Positions 3,779 to 39,050 of a stretch of DNA of 39,050 nt are shown here, piece by piece. Source of the DNA: Nanobdellota archaeon (GTDB lineage: Archaea > Nanobdellota > Nanobdellia > Pacearchaeales > GW2011-AR1); NCBI GenBank assembly GCA_027858295.1, contig JAQICZ010000055.1:1-39050 (forward strand), in the 5' to 3' direction. The notes beneath the pieces are model-generated. The model was not told where the DNA came from. It worked only from the letters and a program-made list of their open reading frames with translations, and did no database searches. Made by a program: the position numbers and the translations under genes. Every line of letters begins with the position of its first letter. The first letter of the stretch is position 1.

Positions 3779-4424
3779 TTTTTATATTTTATTCTCCTTT
3801 TCAATTGTATTTTATTAGAAATAACTAAAAAATTGTCTCATTTACAGACTTGTCGCTTTCTCTACATAGAGAATTTTGAATGTGATATATTGATAATGAT
3901 ATTAAACAATCTAGTGACTTCTAACAAATAATGATGCACAAACTAACTTTTAAAGGTTTTGTATGAAAAATGGACAAACGTAGACCGCTAATTGGGAAAG
4001 TATAAGGAAGAGTTAATTGTTACACACTCGCTATGTTTTAATGAAGGAACTGGTGATTGATATTATGTACCCGCTGCACTTCGTCCGCCTTTCGGCAGGA
4101 CGAGTTGCTATGCTAAGGTACCAATGGCATGACCCGATATGGGAAGCTGGGCCTCAATTGAGTTAAGTGGTACTCCCTTCGGGATTTGGGGAATTGTTTG
4201 AGAAAAATAGAGTTTTAGGGCAAAGAATACATCTGAGTTGTTGAGATTAACAGAGGAGCTTGAATAAAGAATGAAGAGATGAAAAATACTTCGTTTTGCT
4301 CAGTTATTGAGACAATTGAATTATCTGTTCGTGCGGCGTGCATGTGTATTGTCGATTAGCAGAGAAGTTTATAAAAACAGCAGAGGTAGTAGAAGAGATA
4401 ATATAACACTAAATATTCTGGAAA
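3779..4424. repeat. 646-base gap with K, D and E repeat modules
   Basis: No convincing gene is seen. A family K hairpin (CGTCC 4082-4086 with GGACG 4098-4102) sits next to a family D copy (4117-4156, GGTACCAATGGCATGACCC...GGGCCTCA). A CCCTTCGGG hairpin follows near 4175, and a family E copy at 4291-4367 contains CTCAGTTATTGAGACAATTG and CGTGCGGCGTGCA. Bases 3779-4060 hold no recognised feature beyond the dnaG ribosome-binding site. The 72-codon plus-strand frame at 4307-4525 is a shadow of these repeats and the next gene. Confidence 0.65.
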
Positions 4425-6663: not shown

Positions 6664-6809
6664 AGACTTACGTCCTAATTCTAAAAAAATAATTTATCTT
6701 AAATGGAACGCTTCGCCAATTCTCTGCAACGAACAAGAATTAGCAAGTACTCCCACTAACGTAAAGCACTGTGGCTTTATCTCCTCCAATAAATTGGAGA
6801 GTGGGAGCA
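6664..6809 (+). repeat. Family A three-way-junction repeat, copy 1
   Basis: The core folds as P1 CTCCCACT (6750-6757) with AGTGGGAG (6800-6807), P2 TAAAGC (6762-6767) with GCTTTA (6774-6779), and P3 CTCCAAT (6784-6790) with ATTGGAG (6793-6799). Upstream arm AATTCT/AGAATT brackets CTGCAACGAACA. The left 50 bases (AGACTTACGTCCTAATTCTA...) recur almost exactly at 8107. The copy sits just before the cysteine-rich gene. Confidence 0.85.
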
Positions 6810-8105: not shown

Positions 8106-8430
8106 TAGACTTACGTCCTAATTCTAAAAAAATAATTTATCCCAAATGGAACGCTTCGCCAATTAATTGCAAAGTTCGAGTGATTCACAAGTACTCCCAC
8201 TAACGTCAAATTTTTGCTAAAAGTCTCGCTGACCACACCCTTAAGGGTGTGGCTTGACGCGGGACTTTCTTAACGCAAAAATCATCCACTCCCTCTCTTT
8301 TCGGAAACGGTCGCCCTTCGGGTGCCATAATATCGAAGGCATCCACACCCTTAAGGGTGTGGCTTCAATAAGAAGACATGTAAAACGTTTCAGCGTTTTA
8401 TCTCCTCCAATAAATTGGAGAGTGGGAGCA
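8106..8430 (+). repeat. Family A three-way-junction repeat, copy 2, interrupted
   Basis: The left half matches copy 1 through P1 CTCCCACT (8194-8201) and AACG (8202-8205). The right half resumes at 8381 with P2 TAAAACG (8381-8387)/CGTTTTA (8394-8400), P3 CTCCAAT (8405-8411)/ATTGGAG (8414-8420) and P1 AGTGGGAG (8421-8428). The 175 bases between are a family B element. P2 differs from copy 1 (TAAAGC/GCTTTA) yet still pairs. Confidence 0.85.
8206..8380 (+). mobile_element. Family B element inserted into family A repeat
   Basis: It starts (G)TCAAATTTTTGCTAAAAG and ends TTCAATAAGAAGACA(T), the same ends as the copy at 15441-15594. It contains two identical 20-base palindromes CCACACCCTTAAGGGTGTGG (8233-8252 and 8343-8362). 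The first tops a long hairpin closed by ATTTTTGC (8210-8217)/GCAAAAAT (8275-8282) with AAAGTC and CGC pairs in between. It codes for nothing, so it would be a non-autonomous (MITE-like) element. The IS200/IS605-type interpretation rests on subterminal hairpins, the TTCAA tail and lack of a clear target duplication. Confidence 0.65.
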
Positions 8431-14116: not shown

Positions 14117-14148
14117 TCTAGAATATATTTTCATCTTCCACGATTTTG

Positions 14149-14229
14149 ATTTATTTTTTATCAAGATGCTGTAAAATTAATTTTTGTAAATCGTCTGATT
14201 GCAAAAATTGATTTTGCAGTATACAGGTG
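14149..14229 (-). repeat. Family H 3' hairpin after uS7
   Basis: Read on the minus strand: TTTCTTTTTCACCTGTATACTGCAAAAT (split: TTTCTTTTTCAC, then TATACTGCAAAAT), an apical stem AATTTTTGCAATC/GATTTACAAAAATT, then ATTTTACAGCATCTTGATAAAAAATAA. CTGcAAAAT pairs with ATTTTaCAG. The same 5' and 3' arms with other apices lie after two other genes (18250-18332 and 30203-30290). The T-rich 5' part is a likely transcription terminator for the uS12-uS7 unit. Confidence 0.75.
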
Positions 14230-14258
14230 AAAAAGAAACAAAATTAAAAATTAAAAAA

Positions 14259-15440: not shown

Positions 15441-15594
15441 GTCAAATTTTTGCTAAAAGTCTCGCTGACCACACCCTAGTGGAATTCCATTCGCTTTGGA
15501 ATATAGGAAAACGAAATTCTCAGGCAGATAAAATAATTGGAAAATATTTTATTGGAGAATTTGTTTAAAGGGATGTGGTTTCAATAAGAAGACA
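15441..15594 (+). mobile_element. Family B element, copy 3
   Basis: It has the same start (GTCAAATTTTTGCTAAAAGTC) as the copy at 8206, split here as GTCAAATTTTTGC plus TAAAAGTC, and the same end TTCAATAAGAAGACA. CCACACCC (15469-15476) pairs with GGGATGTGG (15570-15578). Unlike the 8.2-kb copy, the stem apex carries about 90 extra bases with sub-hairpins (ATTCCATTC...GAATATAGGAA; AAATAATT...AATATTTTATT). It lies upstream of uS12 and separates it from whatever gene came before. Confidence 0.7.
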
Positions 15595-15819
15595 AATCAG
15601 ATGTCCAGAGAGATAAACTTACAATTTCAAACCTAGAATTCTCTTTACTAACAATTTCAAATGACTTTAAACTTAAGGTATTCAATATCCATGAATTCAT
15701 AAGAGACCAAATTAGCCTTTATTTTTTATTGAAATTTTGATTATTATTGTCTTGTTAAAAATTGGAAGAAAATCTCGGTTACTAGTTATTAGTAAAGCTA
15801 TAAGAAAAATTAAAAAAAA
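15595..15819. other. Gap with a possible gene remnant ended by a B element
   Basis: A minus-strand frame starting at an ATG near 15700 (MNSWILNTLSLKSFEIVSKE...) runs about 39 codons and ends in the B element with SSY-stop, just as the OmpA-like gene does. It may be the start of a gene cut off by the insertion; it is too short to be sure. The rest is AT-rich with no other feature. Confidence 0.3.
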
Positions 15820-16242: not shown

Positions 16243-16556
16243 TTACACACCCGCGGCGTTTTGGACATAAAAAAAAGGAAGCCCCCACGGAGTTTCGCCC
16301 GCACACGGCAGGGCACGCTTCGCCAATTTTCTGCAATGAACAAGAACTCGTACCAATGGCATAAGAACCTGAGTTGACTAAGGCAAGTACCTATTCTAAT
16401 GTAAAGCGTTCCATCGCTTTATCTCCTGCAATCAATTGCAGAGACTAGGCAAACTTGCTCCGCTAAGGTACCAATGGCATGACCCGATATGGGAAGCCGG
16501 GCCTCAGTTGAATTAAATGCCCATCGCTTCGCGATTTGGGTTAAGGTGTCTAACAA
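16243..16556 (+). repeat. Composite K-A-D-E repeat block
   Basis: K hairpin GCCC (16297-16300)-GCACACGGCA-GGGC (16311-16314) leads into family A copy 3: P1 CCTATTCT (16390-16397)/AGACTAGG (16442-16449, one mismatch), P2 TAAAGCG (16402-16408)/CGCTTTA (16415-16421), P3 CTGCAAT (16426-16432)/ATTGCAG (16435-16441). Family D follows at 16467-16506, then CAGTTGAATTAAATG and hairpin CCCATCGC/GCGATTTGGG. The order shows how the modules join. Confidence 0.8.
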
Positions 16557-16611
16557 ATAGAACAAATTATAGAAAGAGAAGATAATAAGAAGCGGATTTC
16601 TTATTGCGAAT

Positions 16612-16642: not shown

Positions 16643-18238
16643 ATGGTGATAACTATTCCTGAGATAATTGCAGCTGTATGCCCTGAAAGATATCTTGATA
16701 GCGGTGAAGATAATGACTTTGCTCATAAACAAAAGGTTAAGAGATTTAAAGCAATAATAGATAAACATCTAAAAGAAGCTGAAGGAAAAGCAAAAAAAGA
16801 AGACAAGAAAGAAGAAACTGAAAAAAGAAATGGTCTCGCCTTAGTTGCTGGAATCAAAGAAGCTCAAGGGGAAGGTCTTTCAAAAGGAAAAGCCGAAGCG
16901 ACCCATGTCTTAAAATATGATTCTCCTACTGAAACGCTTGAACCTATTTACTTTTTTATTCTGGATTTGATTAATGACTTTGGATTTAAAACTGAAAAAC
17001 TTGTTGATAATTTTGTTTCGTCGCCTGGGTCTGGACATTTTGGAGAGATGGGGCAAAGGTCTTCGATTATGCAACAGCAAGGTTCGAAATTACTTGCCGA
17101 TATTAATATGGTGATTAGAAGTATTCTCAATGTGGTTTATGATTTAAGAGATTTTGCCACTAGACTTGAGAGTTATAATGATTATAGAGGGAAGGATAAA
17201 GAAAAAGTAGAGAGTGCTTTACTTAGCCTGAAACAGGTTTGGATGGATAAGGTTGATATTAACAAAGGAAATTCTTCACTAAAAGCGATGGGGCTCGGAC
17301 AGGCTGGATTCACAACTCTTTTAGATGCATTTTTGGTTTGTGATAACGAAGCAGAAGTTGATAAACTTGATTTGAATGCTACGGTAAAGAGAATATTGAA
17401 GCCTAGAATTGCGGAGTTTAATCATTGGATTAAATATTCTGAATCGGAGCTTCGTAAAAGATATGAGATTGAGAAAACTTATTTGAAGAGTCAGGTTAAT
17501 AGTATGCATCTTTATATTGGATGGGCAAAGCCATATCTCCGAGCTGCACAACAACTTCAAATGTCTGAGAATGATAGGCACCCAGCGCTTGTAAAGATGT
17601 TTAATACTATGCTTCTTGAGTTAAGCTTAATTGCGAAGAGAGAATTTAAGGCTGGAGATTTTAAATATGCTGAAACTGGTGTTCAGGATATCCCTGCCTC
17701 TTGGGGATATAAGCCTAAGAAAAAATATTTTGAAGTTGTTTTTGTTGATTTTGATTTTAGGGGGATTCCTCAAAGAACACAGCAGGGATTTGTTGCTGGT
17801 GGAAAAACTGCGATTTCATTTAAAGCATATGCCTTAGATGAAAATCAATTGAAATTGTTTGACTTAGCATTTAAGAGCACAAACTTGACAGATGCTTTTG
17901 ATTTTGTTGAGGGAGCAACAACTGAGAGTATGGAGCAATTAACTAAAGATATTAATTTTTTCTTGTATGACGAAGAGACTGAAGAAGAAGTAAAGGCAAA
18001 AGAGACTAAGAAGAAGAGTACAGGTACTAATCCTTTTTTGGCTTTATTTGGTGCATATAATTCGGGAGCTGGAGAGAAGAAGCCTGCTAAGAAATCGGGT
18101 GGTTCGAATTGGACTAAAAGAGATAAGGAAGCTGAGAACAAATATATTATACCTGCACTTCAGTGGAATGTTAAGAATGATACATTTACTTTCTTTGAGA
18201 TCTATAAGAAAGTGCATGGAATGCCAGCCTTCCCTTGA
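16643..18238 (+). CDS. Large protein of unknown function
   Basis: I choose the ATG at 16643 (MVITIPEIIAAVCPERYLD, 531 residues) over an upstream TTG at 16604, because a TATA-like box lies at 16612-16620 inside the longer frame. The shorter start also removes a spurious hydrophobic leader. The protein is soluble. After a charged Lys/Glu-rich helix (about 35-65) comes a long helical body, then a beta segment KKYFEVVFVDFDFRGIPQRT (about 362-381), and a low-complexity GEKKPAKKSGG linker before an ending NVKNDTFTFFEIYKKVHG. I cannot assign a function. Its length and clean frame argue for a conserved gene. A family H hairpin follows its stop. Confidence 0.75.
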   Translation: MVITIPEIIAAVCPERYLDSGEDNDFAHKQKVKRFKAIIDKHLKEAEGKAKKEDKKEETEKRNGLALVAGIKEAQGEGLSKGKAEATHVLKYDSPTETLEPIYFFILDLINDFGFKTEKLVDNFVSSPGSGHFGEMGQRSSIMQQQGSKLLADINMVIRSILNVVYDLRDFATRLESYNDYRGKDKEKVESALLSLKQVWMDKVDINKGNSSLKAMGLGQAGFTTLLDAFLVCDNEAEVDKLDLNATVKRILKPRIAEFNHWIKYSESELRKRYEIEKTYLKSQVNSMHLYIGWAKPYLRAAQQLQMSENDRHPALVKMFNTMLLELSLIAKREFKAGDFKYAETGVQDIPASWGYKPKKKYFEVVFVDFDFRGIPQRTQQGFVAGGKTAISFKAYALDENQLKLFDLAFKSTNLTDAFDFVEGATTESMEQLTKDINFFLYDEETEEEVKAKETKKKSTGTNPFLALFGAYNSGAGEKKPAKKSGGSNWTKRDKEAENKYIIPALQWNVKNDTFTFFEIYKKVHGMPAFP

Positions 18239-18249
18239 TTTTAATTTCT

Positions 18250-18332
18250 TTTTCACCAATATACTGCAAAATAATTTCTCGCGTAAAGCACTACGCCACG
18301 AAATGATTTTACAGCATCTTGATAAAAAATAA
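18250..18332 (+). repeat. Family H 3' hairpin after the unknown gene
   Basis: TTTCTTTTTCACCAATATAC is followed by CTGCAAAAT (18264-18272), ATTTC (18274-18278), a variable tip CGCGTAAAGCACTACGCC, GAAAT (18300-18304), ATTTTACAG (18306-18314) and CATCTTGATAAAAAATAATC. Arms match those after uS7 and trxB; the tip differs but still pairs. It starts about 10 bases after the stop codon. Confidence 0.75.
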
Positions 18333-18370
18333 TCTCAAAATTGGAGACGAGGAACAAGACAGAAGTCAAA

Positions 18371-19282: not shown

Positions 19283-19603
19283 GGGAAGGGGAATAAATTA
19301 AGGGTTAAAAGTTTTGGGGAGGGGGCATTAGGATAGAGGGTACCAATGGCATGACCCAATAGAGGAAGCTGGGCCTCAGATTGATATATTTAGCTAGCTT
19401 CGGGCCAGTTGAGTTAGTCGTTCGCGCTGCGTGCATAAACTGAGATTAACAATATAATGTTTAAACTATGAAACTTAGTACTGTCCCATTATAATATGGA
19501 GGAGTTATCAATCTTAACACCTAATTATCTTACTAATTGTTGAGGATAGTGGTGGCTAGGAAATAAATTTACAGGACTAAATTAAGAGATTGTAAGAGAT
19601 CAA
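19283..19603. repeat. Gap with D and E modules
   Basis: A family D copy (19339-19378, GGTACCAATGGCATGACCC...GGGCCTCA) runs into CTCAGATTGATAT, a TAGCTAGCTTCGGG stretch, and an E core CAGTTGAGTTAGTCG then TTCGCGCTGCGTGCA and TGAGATTAAC (19405-19450). Bases 19451-19603 show nothing recognisable. Confidence 0.6.
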
Positions 19604-25074: not shown

Positions 25075-25149
25075 GAAGTGAAAAAGAAAAAGTTGGTTAT
25101 TAAGGTTTGGTTAGGGATTGCTTTGAAGAAGGTAACAGATTAATATTAA

Positions 25150-25245
25150 GGTACCAATATCATGACCCGATAGGGGAATCTAGGCCTCCGTTGAATTAAT
25201 GTTAGCCTTCGGCTTCTGGAGTTGTTGGAGATAGACAGAGTAGTT
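25150..25245 (+). repeat. Family D plus E-like module
   Basis: GGTACCAATATCATGACCCG begins the D part (25150-25189), with several changes from other copies. It continues CGTTGAATTAATGTTAGCC, hairpin AGCCTTCGGCT, GGAGTTGTTGGAG and GACAGAG. The D-to-GTTGAATTAA junction is the same as at 16500 and, with changes, 4156. Confidence 0.55.
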
Positions 25246-30202: not shown

Positions 30203-30290
30203 CTTTTTCATCTATACAGCATTAAATGATTTCTTCCGTACAGGAAGTACGCTACGAAATGACTTAATATTATCTTGATAAAAAATAATT
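30203..30290 (+). repeat. Family H 3' hairpin after trxB
   Basis: TTCTTTTTCATCTATACAGC leads to ATTAAAT, ATTTC, a tip CCGTACAGGAAGTACG, GAAAT, ACTTAAT, then ATTATCTTGATAAAAAATAA. It begins three bases past the stop codon. Flanking T-run and tail agree with the copies at 14149 and 18250, but the closing stem has changed. Confidence 0.7.
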
Positions 30291-30312
30291 CAAAGTTTGG
30301 GAGAAGGAGGTA

Positions 30313-38519: not shown

Positions 38520-39050
38520 TCGTGAGTTGACGGTTGAAGGTTTATAATTAAGACAGGGAGCAATTTAGCTCGCGAATAGAACAAATTTTACGGATTAAGG
38601 CAGAAGATAGATTGATATTGAATGTCGTTTGGATTAATGCTACCCGTTGGGTGAGGGAATTGTTAGAGCTTACTTAATAATTGAGTTGATTAAATAATGA
38701 GAGTATCTAAATTTGGCTCTTCTCCCAATTTTGACTAACTCAAAAGTTTAATTCATTGATATTTAGCAACATTAGCTCATTAAAGACAAAAAAAGACCTT
38801 CACTACCGCCGTTTCACAAGTACCTCTACTAACATAAATCGCTTCGGGATTTATTCCTTCAATAAATTGAATAGAGAAGGCATCAGAATAAAGACACTTT
38901 AATTATCGACTCCGTCAGGGGCAAATATTATATTTCAAACAGAAAAATACCATCAATTTTAAAAAAATAATTTACACTATTTGGTTCTGCCAGCGGCGAT
39001 AATTCAAAATTTATATGAGCGGAGCGAACAATTTTTTCAGGTTATGTAAG
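38520..39050. repeat. 531-base right end with heptamers, family A and E parts
   Basis: Heptamers GTTGACG, GTTGAAG, GTTTATA at 38526-38546. A GCTACCCGTTGGGTGAGG hairpin lies near 38640. Family A copy 4 spans about 38810-38882: P2 ATAAATC (38834-38840)/GATTTAT (38848-38854), P3 TTCAAT (38858-38863)/ATTGAA (38866-38871), P1 weaker (CTCTA/TAGAG). An E core AATTATCGACTCCGTC is near 38901-38916. TTTTAAAAAAATAATTTACA (38957-38976) recalls the left flank of A copies. No gene is seen. Confidence 0.65.

What the first reader, a model, noticed from the sequence alone, without database searches (positions are those of the whole stretch)
6750..6807. Dispersed three-way-junction element (family A) with compensatory base changes
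Four copies (6750-6807, 8194-8428 interrupted, 16390-16449, about 38824-38876) share one layout: an outer stem P1 and two inner hairpins. P2 reads TAAAGC/GCTTTA, TAAAACG/CGTTTTA, TAAAGCG/CGCTTTA and ATAAATC/GATTTAT. P3 reads CTCCAAT/ATTGGAG (twice), CTGCAAT/ATTGCAG and TTCAAT/ATTGAA. Both sides change together, so the fold and not the sequence is kept. P1 is perfect in two copies, has one mismatch in a third and is weak in the fourth. This may be an undescribed structured RNA or a single-stranded-DNA fold used in transposition. Covariation is seen; function is inference.
Basis: seen in the sequence. Interest (0 to 1): 0.82.

Follow-up and report, generated by a model that had tools for sequence, protein, structure and literature searches.

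The report
Mobile folded DNA repeat in archaeon
An archaeon's genome carries about 45 copies of a short DNA repeat that can fold into a three-armed shape and that has inserted itself cleanly into other repeats, so it is most likely a tiny, previously unreported mobile element rather than an RNA gene.

Summary
All four window copies share a three-way-junction layout. A covariance model built from 16 copies finds about 45 convincing copies in this 1.35 Mb archaeal genome. It finds none in the other members of the family, order and phylum samples (179, 199 and 370 other genomes, overlapping). Covariation is strong: 145 double-change cells against 42 in shuffles, and far above slid controls.

Copies of the host repeats without the element define exact ends: 5' CG[C/T]TT... 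and 3' ...GCA. The unit is 73 nt, or about 104 nt with a longer leader. Insertions are clean in at least six host repeats, with no target-site duplication, no terminal inverted repeats and no fixed target. Units also join head to tail. P2 is optional, and a P2-less sister family exists.

On the strand given, G·T and A·C departures are equally common (55:55), against 19:0 in the genome's own tRNAs. No shared gene context was seen. These argue against an RNA gene. Best reading: a non-autonomous mobile hairpin element moved as a folded single strand, analogous to REPs, Rickettsia palindromic elements and mitochondrial double-hairpin elements, but a proven member of none. The enzyme is unknown.

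The parts
6709..6809 (+). Family A element, intact copy with long leader (CGCTTCGCCAATT...GTGGGAGCA); P1 CTCCCACT/AGTGGGAG perfect, P2 TAAAGC/GCTTTA, P3 CTCCAA/TTGGAG with UAAA loop
   Evidence: (E=1.4e-17)
8152..8206 (+). 5' part of the second family A copy (leader, P1 5' strand, CTAACGT)
8207..8380 (+). Foreign repeat (family B, CAAATTTTTGC...AAGAAGACATG) inserted in the P2 base of the copy; at most 1 nt (T) duplicated
   Evidence: (family D4); other copies at about 62-170 and 15443-15602
8381..8430 (+). 3' part of the second copy (rest of P2 TAAAACG/CGTTTTA, P3, P1 3' strand, GGGAGCA)
16316..16451 (+). Third family A copy (CGCTTCGCC...GACTAGGCA), with an extra module of about 32 nt in its leader (next row); core 16382-16451
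   Evidence: (E=5.1e-19)
16351..16382 (+). Extra module TACCAATGGCATAAGAACCTGAGTTGACTAAG in the leader; nearly the same module sits in the copy at C58:6192
38810..38882 (+). Fourth copy, short 73-nt form (CGTTTCACAAGTACC...GAGAAGGCA), inserted in a longer repeat (host D, ...CTACCGC|TCAGAAT...); the same host repeat without the element at L098:10338-10456 is 97% identical
   Evidence: (E=2.5e-14)

Best explanation
Family A is a non-autonomous miniature mobile element of a single archaeal lineage. It is 73 nt (about 104 nt with a longer leader): a leader of about 13 nt starting CG[C/T]TT, then a bulged stem (P1, 8 positions) that encloses an optional hairpin P2 and a hairpin P3 (6 bp, UNAA loop), then a short ...GCA tail. 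It has inserted into other intergenic repeats and next to its own copies without target-site duplication. Shown: copy number, ends, clean insertion relative to element-free host repeats, modular gain or loss of P2 and of a second hairpin, covariation. Inferred: a trans-acting enzyme recognises one strand folded into the three-way junction (ssDNA peel-and-paste or rolling circle, or less likely an RNA copy) and joins its ends to a poorly specific target; paired arms are kept complementary because only foldable copies move, or because one arm is recopied from the other.
For: About 45 convincing copies in G000 (47 at E<0.003), mostly intergenic and in both orientations relative to genes. Host repeats with and without the element give the same ends in at least six contexts with no TSD: D CTACCGC|TCAGAAT, F TTTGTTTC|TTTTTGA, G GTTTGTTGG|AGACAGA, E GGACAGGACG|AGTTTGCT, CGCAGTAG|TCGGTTA, AATTTAGC|TCACGGAT. 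Exact head-to-tail units at C22:2644-2953 (x3) and C48:1071-1259 (x2). P2-less copies at C59:3742 and C40:36802; a sister hairpin family inserted into P3 of three copies. Strong double changes. Absent from all other genomes searched, so a lineage-restricted expansion. No TIRs and no TSD suit single-strand mechanisms; a degraded IS91-type HUH transposase gene exists in the genome at C6:11356-11846.
Against: Empty sites are paralogous repeats within one MAG, not orthologous loci in a sister strain; precise loss would look the same. Several near-identical copies (C6, C17:38815, C22:8523, C7) were spread together with host repeat D, so copies are not all independent insertions. No intact enzyme was found: no Y1, no TnpB/Cas12f-type domain PF07282, no IS110; the Y2 relic is frameshifted and has no family A ends nearby. 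The MAG is only 88% complete.
Confidence: 0.72

Rival explanations
1. A multicopy structured small RNA or cis-regulatory RNA: the + strand transcript folds into the three-way junction and binds a protein or acts in UTRs.
For: Strong covariation on a three-helix fold; UNAA loops; one subset lies 13-21 nt downstream of stop codons on the coding strand, and some of those are followed by T-runs.
Against: G-T and A-C cells equal (55:55; 12:24 after leaving out the fourth and fifth P1 pairs and the P2 junction pair) against 19:0 in eight tRNAs of the same genome (Fisher p about 5e-7). No shared upstream promoter or terminator apparent by eye (not tested formally); mixed orientation and distance to genes; the stop-codon subset is explained by insertion into a 3'-UTR host repeat. 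No Rfam match and no relative carries it.
Confidence: 0.12
2. An RNA-mediated mobile element: a folded transcript is reverse-transcribed and inserted, as suggested for Allomyces mitochondrial double-hairpin elements because they lack flanking duplications.
For: No TSD and hairpin architecture match that case (PMC2800124); the genome encodes reverse transcriptase.
Against: The reverse transcriptase belongs to a diversity-generating retroelement (template/variable repeats with 13 of 14 changes at adenines), not a known mobility enzyme; no poly-A tails or 5'-truncated copies stood out; no G-U bias.
Confidence: 0.13
3. Not mobile by itself: an old intergenic repeat spread by recombination and gene conversion together with larger repeats; the 'empty' copies are deletions.
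For: Near-identical copies share long flanks; intergenic regions here are mosaics of many repeat families.
Against: Identical ends in at least six unrelated host sequences and exact head-to-tail tandems need an end-specific process.
Confidence: 0.1

Closest known systems
Double-hairpin and repetitive hairpin-forming elements of mitochondria (Allomyces DHE, sponge RHE; PMC2800124)
   Same: Short intergenic elements with one or two hairpins, complementary changes in stems, tandem insertion, no flanking duplication in Allomyces, enzyme unknown.
   Different: Mitochondrial and eukaryotic; here an archaeal chromosome, an outer stem P1 encloses the hairpins, and leader and tail are conserved.
REP / RAYT-mobilised palindromes (GTAG and CGTC families; PMC3733652, PMC2817692)
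   Same: Short extragenic palindromic repeats with conserved flanking letters, presumed moved in trans as folded DNA.
   Different: 73-104 nt three-way junction rather than a 20-40 bp hairpin; no GTAG or CGTC end tag; no Y1 transposase found.
Rickettsia palindromic elements (RPE; own knowledge)
   Same: Lineage-restricted hairpin repeats, some inside protein genes in frame; a possible family A copy lies in the open truD linker.
   Different: No sequence relation shown; nearly all copies here are intergenic.
IS200/IS605-derived MITEs and IS91-like elements (own knowledge)
   Same: No TSD, no TIR, hairpins near the ends, single-strand transposition.
   Different: No conserved target tetranucleotide at the insertion sites; Y1 absent; only a degraded Y2 gene without matching ends.

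Membership tests
REP (RAYT-associated) | GTAG (or CGTC) tag at one end of a 20-40 bp palindrome | tested here: not met
   Ends are CG[C/T]TT... and ...GCA, unit 73-104 nt
REP (RAYT-associated) | Y1 tyrosine transposase (PF01797) in the genome | tested here: not met
   No match in own genome, which is 88% complete
IS200/IS605-derived MITE | Insertion without TSD, subterminal hairpin | tested here: met
   fold
IS200/IS605-derived MITE | Fixed short target sequence on the 5' side | tested here: not met
   5' flanks CCGC, TTTC, TTGG, GACG, GTAG, TAGC
IS91-like (Y2) element | Y2 HUH transposase present | tested here: inconclusive
   Frameshifted relic at C6:11356-11846; no family A ends around it
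IS91-like (Y2) element | GAAC/CAAG target next to the end | tested here: not met
   Not present at the verified sites
Mitochondrial double-hairpin element (analogue) | Two hairpins with complementary stem changes, clean insertion without duplication | tested here: met
Mitochondrial double-hairpin element (analogue) | Mitochondrial location | tested here: not met
   Cellular archaeal-type genome: EF-1A- and EF-2-type factors and S12 in the window
Rickettsia palindromic element (analogue) | Insertion inside protein genes, read in frame | tested here: inconclusive
   One copy in an open frame in truD; no homolog without it could be found
Structured RNA gene | Covarying fold | tested here: met
Structured RNA gene | G-U tolerated, A-C avoided on the transcribed strand | tested here: not met
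   55:55 against 19:0 in tRNAs
Structured RNA gene | Discrete transcript | not testable with these tools
   No RNA-seq available
Known Rfam family | Covariance-model match | tested here: not met
   No family A match
IS110 bridge-RNA element | IS110 transposase (PF02371) | tested here: not met
   No match in own genome

The most novel reading that the evidence does not exclude
A new class of archaeal mobile element: modular three-way-junction hairpins that move without a fixed target, inverted ends or target duplication through an unidentified enzyme acting on the folded strand, gain and lose whole hairpins, and keep their arms complementary by copying one arm from the other.
Probability: 0.3. 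Interest if true: 0.72.

Novelty: new variant of a known kind. Interest (0 to 1): 0.52.

Why it matters
It would add an archaeal case to the small set of hairpin elements that spread without target duplication, whose enzymes remain unknown in fungal mitochondria and for CGTC-type REPs. With about 45 copies, filled and empty sites and a tandem array in one genome, the mechanism becomes testable. It is also a warning that strong covariation in intergenic DNA can come from mobile hairpins rather than functional RNA, which matters for automated discovery of non-coding RNAs.

Tried and rejected
Rfam: no relevant match. Y1, TnpB/Cas12f-type and IS110 families: absent. The reverse transcriptase turned out to be a diversity-generating retroelement, not a group II intron. 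The genome contigs pattern scan gave five single hits that score only 15-21 bits with the model, judged chance; viral contigs, phages and plasmids gave none. truD homologs in relatives, sought to prove an in-frame insertion, were absent, and the matching linker is not alignable to solved TruD, so that case stays open. A loose regular expression for P2-less copies gave only chance matches; a targeted one found the sister family. Integron attC, Helitron and group II intron ends were considered from own knowledge and rejected by the ends seen (no GTTRRRY, no TC...CTRR, no GTGYG).

Full report
OBSERVATION. The four window copies are as described. The core reads CAAGTAC, P1 5' strand, TAAC, P2, TCC, P3 with a UNAA loop, P1 3' strand, GCA. 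The second copy is split by another repeat (8207-8380), whose removal restores P2 (TAAAACG/CGTTTTA). A blastn search of the genome and a covariance model from 16 copies (R1) find 47 matches at E<0.003 in G000, about 45 of them convincing. A tandem array of three units lies at C22:2644-2953 and a pair at C48:1071-1259.

COVARIATION. On 16 hand-collected copies 90.6% of cells pair, with double changes in 12 of 22 pairs. No shuffle of 500 reaches this, and slid structures pair at only 41-55%. On 44 distinct rows 19 of 22 pairs have double changes: 145 double-change cells against 42 in shuffles. That second alignment was fitted to the model, and shuffles do not control for relatedness, but the slid controls keep relatedness and stay at 9-25 cells. 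P1 is the weakest helix: its fourth pair is unpaired in 34 of 43 scored rows.

WHICH MOLECULE. G-T and A-C cells are equal on the + strand (55:55). After leaving out the fourth and fifth P1 pairs (reciprocal A-C and G-T) and the P2 junction pair they are 12:24. Eight tRNAs of the same genome give 19:0 (Fisher p about 5e-7). Cells are not independent, yet the RNA-like excess of G-U is plainly absent. Copies lie mostly between genes, up- or downstream and in either orientation. One subset sits 13-21 nt after stop codons, but this is the position of a 3'-UTR host repeat that also exists without the element.

ENDS AND INSERTION. Joining the two flanks of each copy and searching about 360 kb of the same genome found the uninterrupted host sequence for at least six different hosts. 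Examples: CTTCACTACCGC|TCAGAATAAAG (window 38810-38882 against L098:10338-10456, 97% identical), AATTTTGTTTC|TTTTTGATTTATAC (C40:36802 against L044:2181), GTCGTTTGTTGG|AGACAGACAGAGTTT (C32:38726, host G; element-free relative L084:1036), GGACAGGACG|AGTTTGCTCTGCT (C48:22300 against L069:1313), CGCAGTAG|TCGGTTATTGGGG (C4:1935 against window 5031) and GGCAATTTAGC|TCACGGATTAGGGC (C16:3850 against L090:8120). In all of these the inserted piece starts CG and ends GCA, and nothing is duplicated or lost. The left flanks share no tetranucleotide. Some host copies carry the element by common descent (C6, C17:38815, C22:8523 and C7 share long flanks), so the number of independent insertions is smaller than the copy number.

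MODULARITY. Copies C59:3742 and C40:36802 lack P2. Three copies (C40:8935, C48:1071, C12:14635) carry in P3 a second hairpin, TGGTAAACCATACTTTCACTTAGCTTCAGAAAACTGAAGAGTGAAAACA. This belongs to a P2-less sister family found on its own at L083:4864, L083:19020, L084:12345, L095:6738 and (more diverged) on the minus strand of L064, whose arms also change together (CTTCAG/CTGAAG against CTCCAA/TTGGAG).

DISTRIBUTION. Nothing in 54 relatives by blastn, nor with the model in 179 other genomes of the family, 199 of the order or 370 of the phylum sample (overlapping sets). No credible match in GTDB species genomes, viral contigs, phages or plasmids (the contig scans used one specific pattern and leave out the window's own records).

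MECHANISM. Absence of TSD and TIR, a foldable strand with short conserved ends, and clean joining fit single-strand transposition. The enzyme is not identified: no Y1, TnpB/Cas12f-type or IS110. A Y2 (IS91-type HUH) gene exists but is frameshifted and unlinked to family A ends. Reverse transcriptase is present but belongs to a diversity-generating retroelement. An RNA intermediate, as proposed for Allomyces hairpin elements because they too lack duplications (PMC2800124), is a live rival.

VERDICT. A real, mobile-looking, lineage-restricted hairpin element; a new variant of a known kind, with its mobilising enzyme open.

Noticed in passing
window 8207-8380, 15443-15602, about 62-170: Family B: longer structured repeat (GTCAAATTTTTGC...CCACACCC...GGGTGTGGCTTCAATAAGAAGACA) inserted inside a family A copy with at most 1 nt duplicated; probably another TSD-less element.
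   Followed up: partly
L083:4864, L083:19020, L084:12345, L095:6738, L064 (minus strand): P2-less sister hairpin family (TGGTAAACCATACTTTTACTTAGCTCCAAAGAATTTGGAGAGTAAAAACA) with compensatory arm changes and apparently clean insertion.
   Followed up: partly
L101:1294-3508 and L102:1269-3035 (C51, C20): Two diversity-generating retroelements: reverse transcriptase, template repeat and variable protein; 13 of 14 template-to-variable changes at adenines in the first; the second has a broken reverse transcriptase.
   Followed up: yes
C45:23702-23757 (L082, truD gene): A shortened family A-like sequence lies in an open frame within the variable linker of truD, reminiscent of Rickettsia palindromic elements inside genes; not provable because relatives lack truD.
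   Followed up: partly
L103:1295-1971 (C6:11356-11846): Frameshifted IS91-type Y2 HUH transposase gene.
   Followed up: partly
window 4105-4211, 16455-16561, 19336-19388, 25147-25199 and many others: Intergenic regions are mosaics of many further repeat families (e.g. GGTACCAATGGCATGACCCGATATGGGAAGC), some nested in each other.
   Followed up: no
window 14145-14248, 18235-18344, 30248-30300: Repeat family that sits directly after stop codons in several loci (TTTTTCACCAATATACTGCAAAATAATTTC...), a possible 3'-UTR or terminator repeat and a frequent host of family A.
   Followed up: partly
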